Shown here in pieces: positions 285 through 42,000 of a stretch of DNA of 64,000 nt; within the stretch, counting starts at the first letter, position 1; every line of letters starts with the position of its first letter. Below the pieces are notes generated by a model. That model was not told the DNA's origin. It worked only from the letters and a program-made list of their open reading frames with translations, and ran no database searches. Where the stretch lies: NCBI GenBank assembly GCA_029204225.1, contig CM055097.1, positions 13,686,721 to 13,750,720 on the forward strand, read 5' to 3'. Position numbers and translations under genes: made by a program. This DNA comes from Diphasiastrum complanatum (taxonomy: Eukaryota > Streptophyta > Lycopodiopsida > Lycopodiales > Lycopodiaceae).

Positions 285-1026
285 ACCTAAGGTTACCATG
301 CATTTTGATCCATTCAAGTGAAAACTATTCATCAATCTTGAGGTAGAAATTGTCAAGGTCCATTTTCCTAGCTATCTTGTTCATTTTTGGATCAAAAGAG
401 ATCAAAAGGACATTGATTGGGTCTGACTTGGTACTCTACAGAATCAGGTGCTCAGACACGTGTGAGGAACATCCAATTTTAGTTTGGAAGTTCTCTCTCA
501 TGCTTGATTTATTTATCTTGCTAGATAGCTTGTTATGAAGCTATTTTTGTCTAGTTTCTGATGCAATCAGTTTCATTCCATTTAGTTGAGCCAATCAAAA
601 GTTATAAGCTTTTGAAGAGGGTTAGGTAGGGCACCTAGACTTGGGTGGACACATTTGGTTTGGTTAAGAGATTGCTTGGTTGATCCAAAATCACAGTTGT
701 ATGCTTACCAATCTCATCTATATGTGATCTAGGCACTCTTTTGAGATCTTAGCCATTTTGTTTCATGCAATATCATTGTATTTCAGTCAAATTTGGTTTC
801 TTAGTGTACTTCACATGTGCTAAGAGTGTTTGATCCTAACTTTGCCCATACTCCATCATTTGACGTGAAATAGATCTTGTTTTAGAGAGATTTGTGTAGC
901 TAGTGAGATTCAATCCACAAATAGTTGCAAGATCTTTCATAGGAGGAGATAGTACTCTATTATTGGATCCTATTGAGAGTGTGTAGAAACATTTATTGTT
1001 CATTATTTGAGTTTTCTTCACTTCAA
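285..1026 (+). other. Copia 5' untranslated leader
   Basis: This stretch lies between the primer-binding site and the gag start. It has short ORFs in several frames but none with recognisable domains. The length is normal for a plant Copia leader. Confidence 0.5.
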
Positions 1027-2020
1027 ATGTCTTCAATGGGTTCATCCTTGTTGGAACCAAGTGCAAGATTGTCCGCTTCAAGCTATTCAATTTGGAAAAT
1101 GAGGATGGAGTCCATCTTGATCCTTCAAGACATGATGGACATAGTTCTTGGCCTTGAAGAAGAACCACAAGTTATTCAAGAGGCTCAAAAATACAAAAAG
1201 AGAACTAGGATGGCTCTCCACTACATTAAGATGAATGTCTCTAATGAGATATTGAGGGAGATAGGTACTTGTACAACAACCAAAGAAGCTTGGGATTGTC
1301 TCAAGACTATCTATGAGGCTAAGAATACCTCTAGGCTTCTCACTCTTAGGAATCAAATCTTTCAAAGTAGCCAAAAGAGTGATAAGAGTGCATCTAGTTA
1401 TGTTTTGAGAGTAAAAGATATTCATAGAGAACTTGCTTGTATTGGTGATTCTATCAACTTGCTTGTATTGGTCATTCTCAATGGCTTGAGAAGTGAATTT
1501 GATAACCTTGTCCAATCCTATGCCATTAAGGAGGAGCTACCAAGTTTGGAGGCTCTCCAAAGTGTGCTAATTTCAGAAGAATCAAGACAAGAGTACAAGC
1601 TCTTGAGGATGGACAAGCTCTCTCTCACTCATAATGATGGCAAAGCTCTCTTTGCCAAGGATAAGCACAAAGGGAGGAGCAAGAACCAATATCAACAATC
1701 CTCAAGCAAGGACAAAGTCAAATTCAAAGACAAAGATGAGGAGGAAGATGATTCCTCTAATGCTTTATCATCCAAGCTCAAGAAGAAGAAGATCAAGTGC
1801 TTTTATTGTGGCAAGAAAGGCCATTATGCCACCAATTGCTTCAAGAAGAAGAATCAACTCAAGCAAGCCAACATTACCAATGAAAAGGAAGACACTATTA
1901 AGAAGGACGGCCTATGGTATATTGATAGTGGAGCCTCTTCACATATGTGTAGCTCCAAGGACTCTTTCTTTTCTATTGCACCTTATGATGGAGTCAAGAA
2001 ATCAAGTGTCATCACAAAAC
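1027..2020 (+). pseudogene. Copia gag and protease start, truncated
   Basis: I chose the Met at 1027 (MSSMGSS) because the Copia gag N-terminus pattern (S-Y-S-I-W-K-M-R-M) follows about 20 residues later. Upstream in-frame codons look like leader. A UBN2-type gag region runs to about 1600, then a basic linker, then a CCHC zinc knuckle at 1798-1839 (C-F-Y-C, G-H, C). The aspartic protease motif I-D-S-G-A-S-S starts at 1921. Copia similarity stops near 2020 and the frame ends in unrelated AT-rich sequence at 2064. Integrase, reverse transcriptase and 3' LTR are absent, so the element is truncated. Gag would form the particle and the protease would process the polyprotein. Confidence 0.85.
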
Positions 2021-2989
2021 ACGAGAATCAGCAAATTATAGACAATGATAGTAATAAAATATGAATCAGAATGAAATGAACTACAAATGAATAGAATACG
2101 GCCTTTTCAATATCTACATCCGTTTGTAAATTATACCATTCAAAAAATAGCTTCGTATTGTACAAGACGAATATGCACAACTAAAAATATCTTGTTGCTG
2201 TACACACTGCATATATAGAACAAAAATTAGTAATATTTTGATAGAAATTTTATTTATGCTATGACGATACACTTGAATTAAAAAAAATACATGCATATCA
2301 GAGATAAATTGAATATACCTTGAGAGATTTAATGGTAATCTCTCCAATTGAAGTTGCCGTTGTCGGTATTTTCTGAACGACATCATGAAGTAGAGAATCA
2401 AATTCTCTATGTGTATTTGCAGCTGAGTTTAATTTTACACAGAGAAAATTTGATACTCCTTCCTTATTTATCTTTACAAAAAGAATATTCAGGCTCCAAT
2501 GCCGACTGTAAGAACCAAAATAAAAATATCGATAAATTCATATTTATGAAAAAAATTTGTTCTTATTAAAGCAATGAAGCATGCAACAATCCAGATTAAA
2601 GTAACAAAAACAAAAGAGCAATCCTTATTTTTTTTCATATGGAATCAAATAGAATTTTGCCATAGGACTGCACTCGATGAAATAGACATCCTTCTCAAAA
2701 TTGGCTTCTTTCACCTTTACCTCTCCCATGAAAAATGGACTAACTGCAAAAATTGTACCATGGGAATCGAAACTAATACTATTCTGTAAAAAAGAAACTT
2801 TGGCCTCTACTATTGCATCTAAAATTTATGAGGTCTTATTTTTTAGTTCGGCACAAAATTTGGGACCTAATCTAAAACTTCTACGTGTATCTGGAAGAAA
2901 AAAATCAAAAACGTTGCCGAGAAGATCAATTTTGTTAACTAGGTAGGCCTCGTATTGATTATAATGGTCAGAATAAAAAAAAACTAGGA
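2021..2989. other. Unassigned AT-rich stretch after the truncated Copia
   Basis: No convincing gene. On the minus strand between about 2600 and 2950 there is a broken stretch of protein-like translation that could continue the ORF at 2990-3346, but it contains stops and I do not recognise it. Plus-strand ORFs of 71-81 codons here look like chance. Confidence 0.35.
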
Positions 2990-11659: not shown

Positions 11660-13765
11660 AGATGATGATGCCGTTACGACCTTGCTTTCATCTCTTCCAA
11701 AGTCGTATGAGCACTTTGTGGTGATAATCTCCACACAACTCGACCTCACTCTTCAAAAGGTGATCAGTCATCTTCTTCAAGAAGAAATGCGGAGAAAGAC
11801 CAGCAGCCTGTCCATCAAAGACAAATTGATGGACCTGTACACCAAAAAGAAAGATTATTCCAAGGGCAAGAATCAAATTCAGCAGCAACAACAGCAGAAG
11901 CCTCACACTCAAGGTGAAAATAGTGGATCGTGCAAGAAGCTTTTCTACAGATATTGCAAGAGAGCCAATCACGACATCAAAAGAGTGTCGTATCTGTTTC
12001 TACAATGAGGCAAAGAAGCAACAACAGCAACAACCAGCATTAATGACAAGTGATGAAGCCAAGGATACCTGGTACATTGATAGTGGTGCGTCCAAGCACA
12101 TGACTTCAAGGAAAGAGTGGTTTTCAAAACTCAAGGAAACTCACAATGATGATGAAGTTGGGCAAGCTGATGGCCAATTGCTATCTGTTAAAGGATTTGG
12201 AGTGATACCAGTGAAGTTAGCCAGCAGGATGATATAGCGAATAAGCAATGTGCAATATGTGCCTGGCTTAGCTAACAATCTACTATCTGTTGGGATGATG
12301 GCTGATCAACAACTCAAGGTTGAGTTTGACAGTGACAAATGTCTTGTCAAAGACATCAAAAATCACTACAAAGTGATTGCTACAGGAGCTAGAGTCAACA
12401 GGAATTGACATATTAGTGCTCAAAGTTTACAGATTCTCAAAAGAGGAATCTAGTTATTGGATTGTCTAATATTCCTAGTGACATCCTAGATCTTGTCCAC
12501 AGTGATCTATGTGGACCTATTCAGACTAGATCTCTTAGTGGCTACTATTATTTTATTACCTTATTTGATGATTATAGCAGATGCATTTGGATTTATTTCA
12601 TAAGCAAAAAATCAGATGCTTTTGCTAAGTTTAGAGAATTCAAGGCATTAGTTGAAAAGCAAACAGGATGTTGCATCAAGACTTTGAGATCTGATGGAGG
12701 TGGTGAGTATTTTTCAACAGAATTTATTGATTTCTGGGGATCAAGAGGTAGACTACAACACCTTATTCACCACAATAAAATGGAGTTGTGAAACGAAAGA
12801 ACATATCTATTATTGAGATGGCCAGAGCGATGCTCAAAAGCAAGGGTCTGCCAAACACCTTTTGGGAAGAAGCTTGTAGCATAGCTACGCACATCATGAA
12901 TCGGTGTCCTACAAATTCCGTGGAAGGTAAGACACCTTATGAAGATTTTACTGGAAAGAAACCTAATATTTCTCATTTGAGAGTATTTGGTTGTGATGCT
13001 TATGTTCATATTTCTGATGAGAAACGAAGGAAATTGTATGCAAAAGCTATCAAGTGTATTTTCCTTGGATATGATGAGAAGGCCAAGGCATACATGATGT
13101 ATGACACAAATGCACAGAAGCTTGTGATTTCTAGGGATTCTAAATTTGACGAGATGGATCGAGGTGAGCAATCTGAAGTAATCACTAAACCTTTTGATGA
13201 GGGAGTGAAAGTACAGGTCAAGAAGGAAGTGGATTTTGATACGAAAAATCCAATGGAAAAAGACAAGCATGATGCTGAAATCCCCAAGAGAGTACCTAAA
13301 TGGTACTTATCAGTCACAGATAATACAAAGAAGGGAAATACTCCCGAATCTAGCGAGCAGGGAGAGCTTAGAAGATCAAGTAGAAATCGAAAACCTCCTA
13401 CAAGATTAGAGATGAATCTAGCCCTAATCGGTTCTGTGTCCAAGGCTCAAGAACCAAAAACTTTTGATAAAGCAAAGGAACACGAGGAGTGGCGTGAAGC
13501 TATGGAAACAGAAATGGAAACTATATCGAAAAATAGGACGTGGAACTTGGTTGAGCTACCTGATGGTAAGACACCTATCACTTGCAAATGGATATACAAG
13601 ATCAAATATGGAGCTGATGGGCAACTCAACAAGTACAAAGCACGCTGGTTGCGAGAGACTTTGAGCAGCATGAAGGTATTGATTTTGAGAAAACCTTCGC
13701 ACCTATAGCTAAGATGGTAACTATACGTTCTATCATTGATATTTCTGCTTTCTACAATTGGAACA
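11660..13765 (+). pseudogene. Copia gag-pol relic A, broken in RT
   Basis: Domains appear in normal Copia order with frame breaks. Gag tail is at about 11682-11850 (L-S-S-L-P-K-S-Y-E), with a degraded knuckle near 11950. Protease D-S-G-A-S-K-H-M is near 12077. An incomplete GAG-pre-integrase region falls at 12240-12430. The integrase core starts at 12462 (V-H-S-D-L-C-G-P-I, later S-D-G-G-G-E-Y), breaks near 12760 and continues at 12788 (M-A-R-A-M-L-K-S-K-G-L-P). RT start is at 13480-13760 (E-E-W-R-E-A-M, C-K-W-I-Y-K-I-K-Y), with a further frameshift near 13650. The element stops abruptly near 13765, where a second Copia relic begins. Stops at 12235 and elsewhere make it non-functional. Confidence 0.85.
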
Positions 13766-28600: not shown

Positions 28601-29993
28601 CACATAGTCACTAGCATCCGTCTCCACCGGGAAAGGTCTGCTAGGGTCCACTATGTGTAAGATAGGGGTTGTAGACACTAACAACTTCAAAGCCTCAAAG
28701 CTTTGATTAAGTTCATCGGTCCAAGGAACAGGTGGACTGATTTTCGAACGCCTTCCGACTTTCTTTTTATTACCCTTTTTAGTTTTCCTTTTGGCTTTCT
28801 TCACTCCCTTAAGAAGATTCGTTAGAGGCAATGCAATCAAGGCATAGTCTTTAATGAATTTATAGAAAAACCCTGTGAAGCCCAAAAAAGATTTAACTTC
28901 CCTAATGGTTTTCAAGATAGACCAATCACGAACTTTTTGGACCTTATCGTAATCGATCGCAAGACCTCGATCGGAAACGATATGTCCCAAGTACTTGAGT
29001 CTTGTCTGAAAGAACTCACACTTAGACTCCTTAGCATAAAACTTTGACTGTCTGAATATCTAAGACGGTACGCAAATGTGCCTCATGCTCCTCAAGGGTC
29101 CTATAAATCAAGATGTCATCCAAAAATACCACGAGAAACTTCCCTAGATATGGATGAAGAATATCGTTTATCATCTGTTGGAAGTTTGTCGGGGCATTAG
29201 TAAGACCAAAGGGTAAAACTAAAAATTCGTAATGGCCATACCTAGAACAAAAATCAGTTTTGGAAACATCCACCTCGTTGATTCTAATTTGATGGTCCCC
29301 CGACCTAAGGTCCAATTTGGTGAAATACTTAGCACCATTCAATCGGTCCATTAAGTCATCCATCCGAGGTAAGGGATAACGGTTCTTTATAGTCATTTTA
29401 TTAAGCTTCTTGTAATCGAGACAAAGACAAATACCACCGTCTTTCTTGCCGGTTAGCAAAACAGGAGCTCCCCAAGGGGACTTACTGGGTCTAATGTGGC
29501 CCTTACGTAATAACTCCTCAAGTTGCCTAGCAATCTCATCTTCTTCCTTTGGGCTCATCCTGTAAGGAAAAAACGATACAGGAGAGCTGTCGAGAAGATC
29601 TATGTGATGGTCCACTCCCCAAGAGGGGGGACGACCCTCAGGCAACTGCTAAGGGAATATATCACTATATTCCTCCTTAAGTCTTTTAAAGATTTTGGCC
29701 TCAGGCGTTGATTCTAAATTAACATCAGAAAAAGACAGCTTTAGGGAAAGACGATACATCAACTTTGAAATTATGAGTAACAAAAGCATCCATGTACGAT
29801 TCATCTTTCAAATAACATAAATACGAGTGATACTCAGAATCCAATAAACCAAGGTTGCATCGAACCGCGGTTCAAACCGCCTTTCACGGTTCGAACCATC
29901 GAATCGTTTGGACCAGGTTCGAACCGGTTGAATCGTTCGAACCATCTGAGGCCCTAAAACGCGATTTCCAGATTCGCGAACATTCTATTCGCG

Positions 29994-33000: not shown

Positions 33001-36000
33001 GTTAAAACTTCAATGTTGAATGATGAACGATGTTGACAGATGTAAGATAAATCTAAGTTTCTAACCTAAATTTTTTTGGCTTTCTCAAACATTGTCATAA
33101 CCTTCTTGTTTATTCTTTTCTCCGATCTCGACATTGCAATTTGCAAATAAGTTTGAACTTCAACTTTCAAGTTTCAACTTTGAAACAAAATTACAATTTA
33201 CAATCTACAGTCCTAGTACCTACGTAGTACGGTCCCGGGTCTAGACTCTAGACTCTACCTAGCTAGTAGCTACAGCTTGCCACTATCCATATCAGTGATC
33301 ACTGTAGTCTGTATCAGACTAGTAAGTACTAAGTGGACCGTGGTCACTAGTTAGTAGTTAGAACTTAGAATTGTGGATCCTAACAAGCCGTATGTACTTG
33401 AAACGGATGACAGTGACTATGCTATAGGCGCAGTCCTATATTGTTAGAAATCCATAAATCATAATATGGATGGACAGACTAGGATTCGAACCCAGGACCT
33501 CCCTCATACCGGATGGGATGCTCTACCATTGAGCTATCCGCCCTGTTTGATAGTTCTCTCTAGAGTGTGGATTGATATTCCAAAACCCCCCCTCAAGCCA
33601 CACTTGGTTGGGGTCCTAGCTGTCACCTGCCCCACAACTTGGGCCACCTAACCATGGCTTTGACACCATGAACTGTTAGGTCTAACTTGGCTCTGATACC
33701 ATGTAGGAAAGCAAGAGACAAGTCACCAAGATCTAGTTATCAATCAATCTCCACAAGAAACAAGAGAGAAGAGGCTGGCGCCCAACTCTAAGAGAGAGAG
33801 AGAGAGAGAAAACAACAACAAGAGCAATGGAGAGCCAAACTGTATAAAATGGAATACACAATGAGCATCTAAGTACTCTACCTGGATGTGACCAAATGCC
33901 ACCAAACCCTAAGGTTAACCACTTACTAAATGTAGGGCACCCCCAAAAGTCAAGATAGGGCCCCTAAACAAAATTAGACCCCTAAGGACCCACGAGTCAG
34001 TACATGACCAAGATTGGGTCCAACTGAACTTAAGACAAACTTAAGATGGCCTAAATAACTAAATACCCATGGTTACACAAATCTCGACCTTTTGGGTCAA
34101 AGTAACCTATGGATTAACTTCAGCATAGTCATTTATTTTTAACACCCTCCTTCAATGACAATGCAAAAACTGAAATCTTCACTATGTAACAAAACCAACA
34201 CGTGGTATCAAATTTAAAGCTTTGCATAAAGCTTCAAATCTGACTCTAGGCAATGCCTTGGTGAAGAGGTCCGCAATATTATCCTCCGTAGGACAATATT
34301 CAAGTAAAATGTCGCCATCATGAAGTCTCTCTCGAACAAAGTGATAATGGATCTCGATGTGCTTCGTCCTCGCATGAAAAACAGAATTCCGTGCAATGGC
34401 AATAACACTTTGACTATCATTCAAGATAAGAGTGGCTGAGGGCTTGCCAAACTTCATGTCAACAAGTAGTCTTCTTAGCCATAAACACTCTGTCGTGGCT
34501 GAAAATATCGCTCTATATTCTGCCTCACTAGAAGAAGTAGCAACAGTGGGCTGCTTTTTACTTGACCACAAAATTGCAGAATTACCATAAAAAGGGCAAT
34601 GTCCACTTGTAGAGCGTCTAGTGTCTTGATCTCCACCCCAATCCGAGTCACTAAAACCAACCAAACATGCATCATCACAAGCAGGAAAAACCAGTCCATG
34701 ACTTCTTGTTCCTTGAAGATATCGAAAGATCCTCTTCAACGCTTTCCAATGTGATGTCATCGGGGCATGCATGAATTGACTCATGAGTGAGACACTATAA
34801 GAAATGTCTGGTCTTGAATTACATAGGTAAATGAGACAGCCAATAGCTTGACAATATAAAGTAGTGTCAAATGATTGACCATCACCTTGACTACTTAATT
34901 TCAAACCTGTCTCCATAGGTGTAGCAACCGGCTTGCAATCTTCCATCTTGAACCGCTTTAAAATCTGCCCAATGTAGCGTTCTTGAGAGATGAAAATTCC
35001 AGCACCTTCTTGTACAAATTCAAGACCAAGATAAAAGTGCAATAGGCCTAAATCTGAGGTTTCAAAAACCATACCAAGATCAAGTATTACGGCATCAATC
35101 TGCTGTTCATTACTTCCCGTAATAATAATATCATCAACATAAAAAATAATGATGATATAATCTGAAGTATGCTTGACATAAAGAGTAGATTCGCTAGGTC
35201 AATTAGTAAACCCTCGATCACAAAAGTAGGCATGTACCTTTTGATACCACATCCTCGAAGCTTGCTTCAGTCCATAAAGTGTCTTCTTGAGAAGACAAAC
35301 TTTATCTTCTTGGCCTTCAACCAAAAAACCAGCAGGTTGTTGAAGGTACACTTCCTCATTGAGATCACCATTGAGGAATGTTGTCTTTATGTCAAGTTGC
35401 CGCAAATGCTAACCAAAGTGGGCAGCCAAAGAGGTTACTACCCTCACGGTAGTCATCCGAGCAGTAGGAGAAAAAGTCTTCTCATAATCAATCCCCTTTT
35501 GCTGAGCATAGCCTTTGGCAATGAGCCTTGCCTTGTACCTTTCAATGGTACCATCTGCCTTATACTTGATTTTGTATACCCATTTAGAACCAATTGCTTT
35601 CTTCCCATGAGGAAGATCAACAAGAACCCAAATTTGGTTCTTCATAAGTGAGTCATACTCATCTTGCATCGCATCCTCCCAACATTTTACTCCCGTGGCC
35701 TGCTCATAGAAAACAGGTTCTTCTGCAACATCTCCATGAGATGTAAGAGCAAAATCTGAAAAATCAGCATAGTCCACTGATTTTGTAGAGGCACGTGTCT
35801 TTCCATCATAAAATGAACTTACTTTGCTGTCCCGCAAAGTCGACAACAGCCATCGTGGGACTGTTTTGGGCTGTCCAACAGCCATGTCTCTTCTTACAAT
35901 TTGCTGTCCAAGATCTTCCGACACCGCACTTGGCTGTCCAAATTCTTCCAAAACTGGTCCTTGCTGTCCAACAGTTCCTACAGGCTAATTTTGAGCAACA

Positions 36001-39000
36001 ACGGGCGGTTCTTGATGAACATTAGGCTCTAAACTTGACGAGGTGTTGGGCAGGTCGAAACTGGTTGATTGCTGCCCCTTATCTCCAACAATAGAAGATG
36101 GTACCAAATTTGGAAAAACTTCAACATTCACACTATGTGGGCTGTCCCCCTTCAAGATATGAGTTGGGGCCACATCCAATGAATTCTTTTCATCAAAATG
36201 CACATCACGACTAAGAATAATCTTATTAGTGCTCAAATTGAACAGCCTATAGCCTTTGCTAACACTACTATAGCCAACAAAATTGCATTTAACTCCTTTA
36301 TCTTCAAGCTTTGTACGAAGTTTATCTGGAACAAAAGCATAAGCCGTACAACCAAAAATGCGAAAGTGAGAGATTGTAGGCTTCTTTCCATACCAAACTT
36401 CATAAGGAGTTAATACTTTCAATGCTTTAGTAGGACAACGATTGCTTATGTATGCTGTCGTTATAATCGCTTTAGCCCAAAACTTGTGAGGCAGCCCCTT
36501 TGCTTTGAGCATGCAACGGGCCATCTCCATGAGTGTGCGATTCTTTCGTTCGGCAACACCATTTTGTTGAGGCGTATAGGGAGTTGTCATTTGATGTAGA
36601 ATTCCCTTTTCTCGAAGAAATGCACCGAACATATTCTTAATGTATTCCCCTCCTCGATCGGTGCGTAGGGTCTTCAAAGAATGCCCAAACTGATTTTCCA
36701 CCATTGTTAGAAAATCTTTGAAACGTTGAAAAACTTCCGATTTAGCCTTCATAGGATAGATCCATGTAAAACGGGAAAAGTCATCAATAAAAGTCACAAA
36801 ATAGATGCACTTTCCAATGGATTCGGTCCTCATTGGACCACAAACATCACTATGAACCAAATCAAATTTATCAAGAACCCTTCTACTTCCATCAATTTCC
36901 TTTGAAACTTTCCAAGTATGCACCCCTCGCATACATGCCCTTCCGGCTGCTCAATAGTAGGAATGTCTTCTACCATATTAAATGTCTTCAGCTTCTTCAA
37001 ACTTGCAAAGTTGAGATGCCCAAACCTTGCGTGCCACAATTCAGCCAACTCCAATGATTGTGGTGTAGAAGCAACAAGACGTGTAGAGAGAATTCGTCGC
37101 TCATAGGTATCCATAATGAATAAGCCAGCATGCATCGTTCCCGAAACAATAATCAAGAGTGATCTTTTAGGATCCTTGACAGGACACTTATCTTCTTTGA
37201 ACTCAACAACTAGTCCTTGCTTCAACATAGTTGAAACCGAAAGAAGATTCTTCTTGATTCTCGGAACATAAAGCACATTCTTAATGTACTTTTTTTCACC
37301 ATTAGGCAAAATGATGGCTACAATTTTAATTCCATGAATAGAATAAGATGCATCATCCGCACATTGTACCTTACTTCCATTTTGCACTTTTACTAATTTA
37401 GTAAATGCTTCTTTGCGAGAAGTCATATGACGAGTAGCACCACTATTAATCACCCATTCAATGGGCTGAAAATCAGCAACTTGCAAAACAGAATCTGAAT
37501 TTCTCATAGATGTAGTAGTACTAGTAGAAGCAATATTAGACACAAAAGCATAGTCTTGGTTGAAGAGATCACCACTAGCTTCAAGCTCTTGCTCCAAAGT
37601 AGCAAGTGAAGCACTAGTATCAATTCCTTTACTGTCCTCTTTCGCAAGCTTCTTCTTACAATCCTTAATGAAGTGCCCATACCTTTTGCAATAATGGCAC
37701 TTCCCTTTCTTCTTTTGAGTGTTGACATCTTGACCTCCAACGGGCTTTTGCTCATCCTTGGAAGGAGGCTTCCCCTTTCCTTTTGACTTGCCTTTGCCCT
37801 TGCCTTTCGTGAAAAAAGCTTGATCTTGTTGAGTGTCACCCGCAAAGTTTTGCCTCATGCTCCTCTTGAAGAAGCAGCCCAACAAGTTCATCAAAGGAGA
37901 GTTGCTGTCCCCTAAGAGAGATACTCAAAGATGAAACAAATGGAAGATAAGATGAAGGTAATGAGTTGAGAGTAGTGGAAACAAATTGAGCATCCTCAAT
38001 TATCTCATCAATATTGAGAAGCTCCTCACGAAGATCCTTGATCTTCGTCAAGTGATTGGTCACTTGATCCCCTTCTTGCATCTTCAACAAAGAAAGCTGA
38101 TTTATGAGATACACCACTCTTGCTGGATTTTTGACTCTATACATAGTATAAAGTGTATCCCACGCACTTTTAGATGTCTTACAAGACCTAATATGACGTA
38201 AGATAGATCTTTTCATAGCAAGAGCAACCATAGAATGTGCTTGTGCATCCCTTTTATCCCACTTCTTTTGTTCTTCCGAAGATGGAGAAGATGATGTTGA
38301 TGATGATGATCCACGAGGTGTAGGAGGTGCCAAAGACGGAGGCCTTTCCTCATCACCATTGACCAAATCCCACAGCCCTTTCGCTATGAGAAGATTCTTC
38401 ATCATGTAACTCCACAAGGAGTAGTTTGTGCCATCCAACCAATCTTCACTAAACAAAGAACCGATAGCTTCCGATTCTTTAGCCATTACTTCCAACAAAA
38501 TTTCAGCTTGTAGTAGATAGGAAAGAGAGCCTTTCCACAACCAAATCTACTCAAAAATTTGCAGCAAACAAAGAGCTGAAAGTAGGAGCACAAGATATCT
38601 TTCAATCTGCAACCAAAGTGCCCAGAAGATAATGGATAGATGGCTGTCTTTCTGCACAAAAAAACCAGCTTCTTGAAAATAAGGTTAGCTTCGATTGAAG
38701 CCTACACCGAAACCCAATTAGGAAGCCAAATAGTGTGATCAACACACACTCCAATAGGGCTGTTGAAAGCACCCTACTACTTGTTGAGAATCTGCAAATT
38801 TTCAGCCACAAGTTGACCTAACCCTGAATAGGGTTTGCTGAATTTTGGGCGCCCTCCTACACAAATGCAAACCTGAAAACAAAAACAGCAAGATAAGGAG
38901 ACACCACAACCAAAAATCAGTTGCAGATTTTTGGGCACCCTCCTCCAAACAAAACTTGTTGAAAACTGGTTGCATAAAAATCAGATTTGAGATTCTGATT

Positions 39001-42000
39001 TTTGGGTGCCAAAAATTGCTCCTCCAAGATCTCTGATGGCCGCCCTCCTTCAACCTGAAAAGAGACAAAAAAGCTGATCCAAACTCCACTTGAAAAGATC
39101 AGCAAGATGTTAAAATTTCACAACAAAAAGTAGAGAAGCTCCTCTTCTGGTAGGGCACCAACAAACAAGCTTGTTGCAGATCCGGAAGCTTTGATACCAT
39201 GTTAGAAATCCATAAATCATAATATGGATGGATAGATTAGGATTCGAACCCAAGACCTCCCTCATACCGGATGGGATGCTCTACCACTGAGCTATCCGCC
39301 CTGTTTGATAGTTCTCTCTAGAGTGTGGATTGATATTCCAACATATATCAGGATGGTAGACCGGTTGCTTTTGAAAGCAAGAAGTTGGACCCTGCTCAAA
39401 GGCGGTATTCCACCTATGACAATGAACTTTTTGTTGTTATTTATGGCCTGAACGTTTGGAGACATTATTTGTATGGCTCCCAGTTTACCATAGTTACTGA
39501 CCATCAAGCGTTAAAGTATATTAACGATGCGGTCGACCTTAGAGGTCGTAAGGCCAGATGGTCAGAGATGCTCCAAGAATTTCATTTTGATATTGAGTAC
39601 CGGAAAGGTACTTCTAATAGTGTCGTGGATGCCTTAAGCCGGATTGGAGAGGTTGATCAGTTAAGCTTTTTTGAGATCCAATCTGAGTTGTATCTGTCCT
39701 TAAGAGATTTGTGTAAGACGATAGGTACTTCGGTCGTATTTGGCTTGACCGATGACTCGTGAACCTGCATGGTTGCCACGTGTCATGATCTAGGTGTGCA
39801 CATGGCTTGGAGTCTCTCTCCTTGGAGGTATACAAGGGGAGGAGGACTCATTTACCATCCATTCTATCTACCTAGGAGGAGGTGGATGGAGAGCGTGTGC
39901 ACGGCCAGGATGTATGCTAGTGTGAGGTAGGAGATGACTGAGAGCCTAGGCGGTGATATGGGACGCCGTTTAGGATGGAAGTCGGATCCAGCTTGATACG
40001 GTCACAGGCCAAGGCATGGAGGGTGGACTCGCATTAGGTCCTACGGTGGGTTGGAACGTGAATCGTTCAATCTCTTGTGGTTAACCGGCACTTGGAGGTT
40101 TGCAGTAAGTAGGGATTGTAACAGTGCCACTTCTCCATGCAGGAGAAACATAACCCGCCGCTTTTGGCCTTGTCAAAGTCAGCTCTCTCCAACCAAGGGC
40201 GCTTCTTTTTCTTTCCCGAAGGGAAAGCTTCGTCAACAACTCTCTCTTTGCGCTTTTTAAAGGAAGGGCCCGAAGAGGGTTTGTCCATGGACTCAGGCTT
40301 TTGTTGCTCTTTGCGGGTCATTTTGTGCGTATCGTCGAAAATTTCAGCGAAACGCACCACATCCTCAAGGGATTGTGGCTGATTGCGGCGGACTTCCAAC
40401 TGATACTCTTTGGGCAAGCCCAAAATAGAATGCAGCTTAAGGAGAACTTCGTCAATGCGGTTAACAAACCACGAAGCAGCTTCTTGGAAGTCTTGCAAAT
40501 AGACATCTAAGGGTTTCGTCCCCATTTGCAATGTAGCAAATCGACGATAATACTCAAAATCGTCGAGGACTGGCATAAAGGATTGTAGCACACTCCTTAA
40601 GATCCTGCCACCATAAGTATGCTTTTCCGCGCAAAAACATAATAGCAATAGCAATCCGGGAGCTGTTTGGCAGATTGTGCATGGAAAAATGAGATGTCCA
40701 CCGATCAAAGCCAAGCCAAGACCACGTCCTGGTGTCTGTCCTTTTTCTCCCCAGTGAAAAACTCCGGGGTAAACATCGGGTTGAGGAGTGCCTGCCCGAG
40801 ATTGGGACATAGCCCTCAACTTCTCCGCCCGTTTATGCTTAGAGTGCATGTCGACAATCTGTTCTTGCAACAGATTTATCGCACGCGTTATTTGCTCCAT
40901 GTCAGTCCTCGCGGGACTTGGAGCTTGAGTAACATCCATAGGGGTGTCCATGGCAATAGCAAAGTGTAGGGAAAAGCTAGATGAAAAACGAGGAGCAACA
41001 GTGTCCAAACCGTTAAAAACTGACAACTATAGCACAAAAGCCCAAGAAAATAAGCAAACTTGAGCTTATAGAGCACTCAAAAACAACTTGGGAAAATGGG
41101 GTGAAGGAATGTGATCGTACGCTCCTTTACCCCCTCTCCTAAGCTTCTCTCCTTCATGCAAAAGGGACAACTGGGGCCCAAGAAAGGCCCCATTTGTCCC
41201 TTCTAGAACTTCCTCACCATGTGGGACCACCATAGGGTGCCACATGGCCCATGGATCCCAATAAGATATTAAACTAAGTTAAGGGATCTGCAGGTACAGA
41301 GAGGGAGGAGGAGGAAGTATGATAAAAAAAGGATAGGGGTCCAAGAATTTATCTTGGTTCAATCTTTTAAGCAAAGATTAAAAGCCTTTAATGGGCTTTC
41401 CCTCAAACGGTATAAAATTTTTAACTTAGAAGCAAAGGTTTTTTTCAAACTCATAACTTAAGTTCTCAAACATTTTATTAAACTTTTGCTTCAAGTATTT
41501 TGTTTCTATGGGGAAGCGTACACTTCCCCTCCCCCAAAAAGTCACATCGATGGATGAGGAGGGGGAAGTACAAAGTACTCCCCCCCCCCCCCCCTCTCTT
41601 TAAAAAGGAAAAACAAGTGGGCCAGGGTAGCTGCTGCCTCATGAAAAAAATAGATTCAAAGGGGGAAGGAACCCCCCACCCTCCCCCCGTTTATGCTTAG
41701 AGTGCATGTCGACAATCTGTTCTTGCAACAGATTTATCGCACGCGTTATTTGCTCCATGTCAGTCCTCGCGGGACTTGGAGCTTGAGTAACATCCATAGG
41801 GGTGTCCATGGCAATAGCAAAGTGTAGGGAAAAGCTAGATGAAAAACGAGGAGCAACAGTGTCCAAACCGTTAAAAACTGACAACTATAGCACAAAAGCC
41901 CAAGAAAATAAGCAAACTTGAGCTTATAGAGCACTCAAAAACAACTTGGGAAAATGGGGTGAAGGAATGTGATCGTACGCTCCTTTACCCCCTCTCCTAA

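What the first reader, a model, noticed from the sequence alone, without database searches (positions are those of the whole stretch)
33442..39343. Copia LTRs that carry a tRNA-like Pol III cassette
Both 144-bp LTRs contain the same 73-nt sequence (33471-33543 and 39229-39301) that folds as a tRNA cloverleaf in the element's sense direction, with consensus A and B boxes. LTRs this short, half made of a tRNA, in an element that also encodes full gag-pol are unusual. Cassandra-type TRIMs carry 5S rRNA in their LTRs (established knowledge); a tRNA analogue in an autonomous-type Copia would be a separate invention. It could give Pol III transcription, antagonise silencing, or recombine with tRNA genes. 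The weak anticodon arm and missing T4 terminator argue against a working tRNA.
Basis: partly seen in the sequence, partly recalled or inferred. Interest (0 to 1): 0.85.

Follow-up and report, generated by a model that had tools for sequence, protein, structure and literature searches.

The report
tRNA-LTR mini-retrotransposon fused with Copia
The tRNA-bearing repeats belong to a 404-bp parasitic mini-retrotransposon that is abundant in this plant-like genome, and the window holds one of many fusions in which it swallowed a protein-coding Copia element at a shared replication-start site, which points to the Copia families that probably move it.

Summary
The tRNA-like cassette is real: both 144-bp LTRs contain it, and 0 of 2000 shuffles do. 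But these are not the Copia's LTRs. They belong to a 404-bp TRIM (LTR_t-INT_t-LTR_t) with 778 LTR_t-INT_t junctions in the host genome, of the kind Kojima 2024 named Helenus. The Copia's own 443-bp LTR_c, without a tRNA, lies inside at 33702-34144, followed by a second PBS and the TRIM interior. Similar chimeras occur across the genome with at least two Copia families. Partners switch at the primer-binding site; two tested polypurine-tract swaps were not found. Outer target-site duplications are perfect in 5 of 6 composites that could be tested. In the best tree LTR_t-linked Copias are not one clade, though more clustered than shuffled labels and weakly resolved, so repeated events are likelier than one tRNA-LTR Copia lineage. 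A T run about 70 nt into the Copia leader should stop Pol III. Inferred mechanism: TRIM and Copia share a primer tRNA, and strand transfer at the PBS swaps their LTRs. Not shown: Pol III transcription, or the exchange itself.

The parts
39344..39348 (.). target-site duplication TATAT (right copy)
39200..39343 (-). 5' LTR_t (TRIM LTR)
39229..39301 (-). tRNA-like cassette in the 5' LTR_t (A box 39283-39294, B box 39240-39250)
39188..39199 (-). primer-binding site of the Copia (PBS_c), joined directly to LTR_t
34182..38540 (-). Copia gag-pol region, broken into several ORFs in this copy (gag, GAG-pre-integrase, integrase, RVT_2)
34145..34155 (-). polypurine tract of the Copia (PPT_c)
33702..34144 (-). 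LTR_c, the Copia's own 443-bp LTR, without a tRNA
33586..33701 (-). TRIM interior INT_t: PBS_t (33689-33701) to PPT_t (about 33586-33596)
33442..33585 (-). 3' LTR_t (TRIM LTR)
33471..33543 (-). tRNA-like cassette in the 3' LTR_t (A box 33525-33536, B box 33482-33492)
33437..33441 (.). target-site duplication TATAT (left copy)

Best explanation
The window holds a chimeric retroelement chain: LTR_t - PBS_c/gag-pol/PPT_c - LTR_c - PBS_t/INT_t/PPT_t - LTR_t. LTR_t and INT_t come from a Helenus-like TRIM whose LTR contains a tRNA-derived, probably Pol III, promoter; gag-pol and LTR_c come from an ordinary Copia (Copia-C) that very likely supplies the proteins that move the TRIM. Shown: the anatomy, the abundance of both parents, recurrence with a second Copia family (X), junctions at the PBS, absence of the two PPT-side junctions that were searched, and TSDs at the tested places. 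Inferred: TRIM and Copia RNAs meet in one virus-like particle and share a primer tRNA; at the second strand transfer, which relies on PBS complementarity, an LTR of one element is placed on the other's cDNA; chains then form through shared LTRs and integrate. The tRNA cassette serves the TRIM, not gag-pol expression.
For: Junction counts: LTR_t to INT_t 778; LTR_c to Copia-C 729; LTR_t to Copia-C-like leaders 49 of 67 rows by eye, 17 of them in two C5 clusters or on C490; LTR_c to INT_t 21, LTR_x 14 and a third LTR 4 of 61 rows by eye; LTR_t to Copia-X 11 of the 19 rows with up to 2 mismatches (394 rows in all, 100 listed). PPT side: Copia-C to LTR_t 0 at up to 2 mismatches, INT_t to LTR_c 0 at up to 3. 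Shared sequence: 14 nt between PBS_t and the PBS of Copia-X, the only plus-strand match with E below 0.1 among the pieces compared; 12 nt with the PBS of native Copia-C copies (read). Outer TSDs: 5 of 6 LTR_t-ended composites perfect, 2 of 2 gag-bearing chimeras, 1 of 1 LTR_c-ended chimera. LTR_t-linked Copias are not one clade in the best tree (7 label changes); 17 of 18 are at least as close to a native copy as to another composite. First TTTT of the Copia leader at 68-71 in the 9 composites looked at.
Against: The exchange itself was not observed. TSDs would also be seen if a Copia circle recombined into an already inserted TRIM. The labels are more clustered than chance: 7 changes against a shuffled mean of 11.9, reached by 2 of 500 shuffles, and supported forks do not rule out one origin; with native rows chosen only by likeness to the window the tree needed 2 changes. 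Only 16-17 native copies of about 729 were used, and nearness may reflect short native branches. In the 3' region 5 of 9 composites were nearer to another composite, two of these being one duplicated locus. Only two PPT-side swaps were searched. Of six 3' stretches fetched, three showed no composite end, one an array with a truncated last LTR, and one a TRIM unit in the opposite orientation. A and B boxes are not more conserved than the rest of the LTR. No transcript data. The shared primer as initiator Met tRNA is recalled, not tested.
Confidence: 0.63

Rival explanations
1. In-place recombination: one-LTR circles of the Copia (or of the TRIM) recombine or are end-joined at the short PBS match into an element that is already inserted, giving the same composites with the older TSD.
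For: Explains both arrangements in one step and the TSDs; end-joining can use 12-14 nt (recalled).
Against: The shared stretch is only 12-14 nt, short for homologous recombination (recalled); it recurs with two different Copia families.
Confidence: 0.2
2. The composite itself replicates as a unit: a tRNA-LTR Copia lineage, in which LTR_t drives an autonomous-type element.
For: Several LTR_t-ended composites at different loci carry their own TSDs; one has identical outer LTRs, 0 of 144. LTR_t labels are more clustered than in shuffles, 2 of 500 as low. In the 3' region 5 of 9 composites are nearest to another composite, two of these being one duplicated locus.
Against: Not one clade in the best tree of the 5' region (nearest neighbours); the T run about 70 nt into the leader would stop Pol III; some places with identical flanks are duplicated loci.
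Confidence: 0.13
3. One reading: an autonomous-type Copia family whose own LTRs acquired a tRNA.
For: In the window the outermost repeats of the gag-pol element do carry it.
Against: The Copia has its own LTR_c inside, with 729 native LTR_c junctions; the direct junction of the Copia-C polypurine tract with LTR_t was not found at up to 2 mismatches.
Confidence: 0.02
4. The TRIM arose from the large element by deletion between the two PBS copies, as Gao et al. 2016 proposed for rice OsajRetroS10 and OsajLTRA10.
For: Same geometry: the PBS sequence stands on both sides of the breakpoint (section read).
Against: The extra segment is a Copia with its own LTR that exists natively; the reciprocal arrangement and a second Copia family also occur.
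Confidence: 0.02

Closest known systems
Helenus / TRIMp3 (Kojima 2024, PMC10886601; abstract, sections 3.1-3.5 and start of 3.6, section 4.1, and passages of 3.6 and 4.2 read)
   Same: [quoted passage not shown] only plant case listed there is Selaginella
   Different: The window copy encloses a gag-pol Copia and a second LTR; Copia families are physically linked to the TRIM here, whereas the paper thought a long shared LTR stretch with the autonomous partner unlikely
Template-switching complex LTR insertions (Sabot and Schulman 2007, PMC1950507; whole text read)
   Same: Three LTRs, flanking 5-bp TSD, similar outer LTRs
   Different: Their complexes join close relatives through R; here unlike families join at the PBS, and the inner LTR differs from the outer ones
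Rice OsajRetroS10 / OsajLTRA10 (Gao et al. 2016, PMC4717578; two sections and passages read)
   Same: TRIM and a large Ty1-copia share LTRs; a repeat that contains TGGTATCAGAGCC stands on both sides of the breakpoint
   Different: Explained there by deletion from an autonomous parent; whether the rice element holds a second inner LTR was not tested
Cassandra (PMC7215508, passages read)
   Same: TRIM with a Pol III-type promoter in the LTR, tandem arrays
   Different: 5S rRNA instead of tRNA
Veju long form and BARE-2 (passages in PMC13317346; mention in PMC1950507)
   Same: TRIM or LTR element that gained foreign sequence by template switching
   Different: No tRNA in the LTR and no PBS-specific exchange in the passages read

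Membership tests
Helenus (the 404-bp element) | tRNA-derived sequence with A and B boxes in both LTRs | tested here: met
   window LTRs; 89 of 93 sequences give a tRNA call
Helenus (the 404-bp element) | TRIM size (311-1263 bp in the paper), PBS and PPT, no coding sequence | tested here: met
   404 bp in 9 of 10 copies measured, 403 in the other; PBS_t and PPT_t; coding potential judged from the length only
Helenus (the 404-bp element) | 5-bp TSD | tested here: met
   20 copies fetched; 15 had both LTRs in the stretch, 8 of these match perfectly
Helenus (the 404-bp element) | transcription by Pol III | not testable with these tools
   no RNA data; the paper itself calls it expected, not validated
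Helenus (the window element as a whole) | short, non-coding | tested here: not met
   5.9 kb with gag-pol
Template-switching complex | inner LTR, flanking TSD, similar outer LTRs | tested here: met
   window:
Template-switching complex | joined through homologous R regions of related elements | tested here: not met
   LTR_t and LTR_c gave no plus-strand match at E 5 or better; the junction is at the PBS
Cassandra | 5S rRNA in the LTR | tested here: not met
   the only Rfam matches in the window at gathering score are the two tRNAs

The most novel reading that the evidence does not exclude
PBS-directed LTR exchange between a Pol III-type TRIM and its helper Copias is a recurrent, general by-product of trans-mobilisation. 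It leaves junctions that identify the helper families of orphan TRIMs, and some published 'autonomous partners' that share TRIM LTRs, such as rice OsajLTRA10, are really such chimeras.
Probability: 0.42. Interest if true: 0.7.

Novelty: new variant of a known kind. Interest (0 to 1): 0.55.

Why it matters
TRIMs carry no proteins and their helpers are mostly unknown: Kojima 2024 says that no autonomous partner of Cassandra is indicated, and Gao 2016 found no related coding element for 278 of 289 TRIM subfamilies. Chimeric PBS junctions would give a simple sequence test for the helper. The case also adds a high-copy tRNA-LTR TRIM in what looks like a plant, warns that tRNA gene finders will count such LTRs as tRNA genes, and offers another reading of LTR-sharing 'autonomous partners'.

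Tried and rejected
Nested insertion of a TRIM in a Copia: rejected, it would leave two LTR_t copies and an inner TSD. Recombination between neighbouring insertions: rejected for the composites with perfect TSDs. Selection on A and B boxes: diversity 0.038 (A) and 0.033 (B without CpG; 0.052 with it) against 0.032-0.042 for non-CpG sites elsewhere; no signal. Absence of TTTT in the TRIM: 9 of 10 copies have none, but 36-65% of shuffles have none either; no evidence. Folding energy: not unusual. Viral contigs: 0 matches for one 30-base pattern. Source tRNA isotype: not tested.

Rows dropped or sorted by eye before counts: 18 of 67 rows (LTR_c-like or ambiguous) were left out, 14 of 61 rows (LTR_t-like variants) were left out and 8 were entered as unclassified; only the 11 LTR_t-like rows were entered. 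LTR copies come from loci chosen by similarity to the window, 105 reduced to 92 after removal of repeats. In the 3' comparison one composite array (L072) was filed among the 12 native rows.

Full report
What is there. On the minus strand the window reads, from 39343 down: LTR_t (39200-39343), PBS and gag-pol of a Copia, the Copia's polypurine tract, a 443-bp second LTR (LTR_c, 33702-34144), a second PBS with a 116-bp interior (INT_t, 33586-33701) and LTR_t again (33442-33585). The ends carry a 5-bp duplication TATAT. The right flank encodes a Ty3/gypsy RNase H, and by eye the two flanks read on as one frame. The gag-pol of this copy is split into several ORFs.

The tRNA cassette. ARAGORN and Rfam agree on both copies, and none of 2000 shuffles gives a call. 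89 of 93 LTR sequences give a call, 80 of them Thr-GGT. The anticodon arm is poor and the fold is no better than shuffles, as expected of a promoter relic rather than a working tRNA. LTR_c of the window and LTR_x of L006 have none.

Whose LTR it is. The host assembly (1.74 Gb, unnamed; plant is my inference from its retroelements) has 778 LTR_t-INT_t junctions at up to 2 mismatches. TRIM copies are 404 bp (9 of 10 measured, the other 403). Of 20 copies fetched, 15 had both LTRs in the stretch, and 8 of these have perfect TSDs. All 40 scored INT_t hits were identical to the window's INT_t, but only 40 of 1125 candidates were scored. The Copia exists natively with LTR_c: 729 junctions. So the window element joins two families.

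Chimeras. LTR_t to Copia-C-like leaders: 49 of 67 rows by eye, 17 of them in two clusters on C5 or on C490. Two independent DNA queries gave the same 19 places with long matches. LTR_c to INT_t: 21, plus 14 from a second family X and 4 from a third LTR, of 61 rows. LTR_t to Copia-X: 11 of the 19 rows with up to 2 mismatches. By distance and strand alone, pairs 6 LTR_t-ended and 13 inverse arrangements (LTR_c or LTR_x - INT_t - LTR_t - Copia); loci read directly add C13 (two places with identical flanks) and C3 to the first kind and C4:39.25 Mb to the second. Three X places share flanks and are one duplicated insertion.

Single insertions. Outer TSDs are perfect in 5 of 6 LTR_t-ended composites whose two ends were read (window, C2, C14, C3, C17; C13, counted once, matches 4 of 5 bases), in 2 of 2 gag-bearing chimeras, and at the LTR_c ends of the one inverse composite tested, C4:71.31 Mb. 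Other places were not tested. Of six 3' stretches fetched, one was a complete composite (L070), one an array with a truncated last LTR (L072), one had a TRIM unit in the opposite orientation (L071) and three showed no composite end.

Where they join. The PBS is the place of exchange. Searches for two PPT-side swaps found none: Copia-C to LTR_t 0 at up to 2 mismatches (the 37 rows at 3 mismatches look like TRIM variants or another LTR), INT_t to LTR_c 0 at up to 3. Swaps with other families were not searched. Among the pieces compared on the plus strand the only match better than E 0.1 is 14 nt at the PBS of Copia-X; native Copia-C copies share 12 nt there (read). This is what a second strand transfer in trans predicts if both use one primer tRNA (recalled: initiator Met).

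One lineage or many. With native rows chosen by likeness to the window, the tree of the 5' region needs 2 label changes. After five native copies nearest to another composite were added it needs 7 for 18 LTR_t-linked against 17 other rows; shuffled labels need 11.9 on average and 2 of 500 shuffles reach 7, and well-supported forks do not rule out one origin. 17 of 18 are at least as close to a native copy as to another composite once duplicate pairs are set aside. In the 3' region 4 of 9 are. I read this as repeated events with some clustering.

Function. In the 9 composites looked at, the first TTTT lies 68-71 nt into the Copia leader, so a Pol III transcript from LTR_t would be expected to end there. 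The cassette can serve the 404-bp TRIM, not gag-pol. Whether it is transcribed is unknown.

Known and new. Helenus already covers tRNA-LTR TRIMs, with Selaginella as the only plant listed; template-switch complexes are known. The listings of paper searches (no hits) showed no report of a tRNA-LTR TRIM fused to its helper at the PBS; the library is partial. Rice OsajLTRA10 has the same PBS repeat at its breakpoints and may be a similar chimera.

Noticed in passing
G000 C5:37.5-37.97 Mb, C5:65.19-65.69 Mb, C490 (L101): 17 places share LTR_t plus a PBS variant; the one read (L101) has about 120 bp of Copia leader at 86% and then diverges, so it may be an old duplicated fragment family.
   Followed up: partly
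L041, L049: TRIMs that carry about 1.3 kb of Copia leader and gag between LTR_t copies, each with a perfect TSD.
   Followed up: partly
L048; G000 C2:78731292-78731843: Tandem TRIM arrays with 260-bp spacing.
   Followed up: no
L042, L071: A TRIM unit and an LTR_t-Copia in opposite orientations side by side.
   Followed up: no
window 39385-39762 and left of 33442: The composite sits in a Ty3/gypsy RT-RNase H gene.
   Followed up: partly
window 973-2064, 12788-13708, 29031-29645: Further retroelement ORFs: Copia gag, Copia SH3/RT part, and an RVT_1 reverse transcriptase.
   Followed up: no
L006: Second Copia family X, whose LTR is 80% like LTR_c over 243 bp; most of the 100 listed rows (394 in all) look like its native junctions.
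   Followed up: partly
L107 (G000 C5:75469075-75469155): The LTR_x of this chimera is preceded by a polypurine-like stretch, which suggests a longer chain with another Copia upstream.
   Followed up: no
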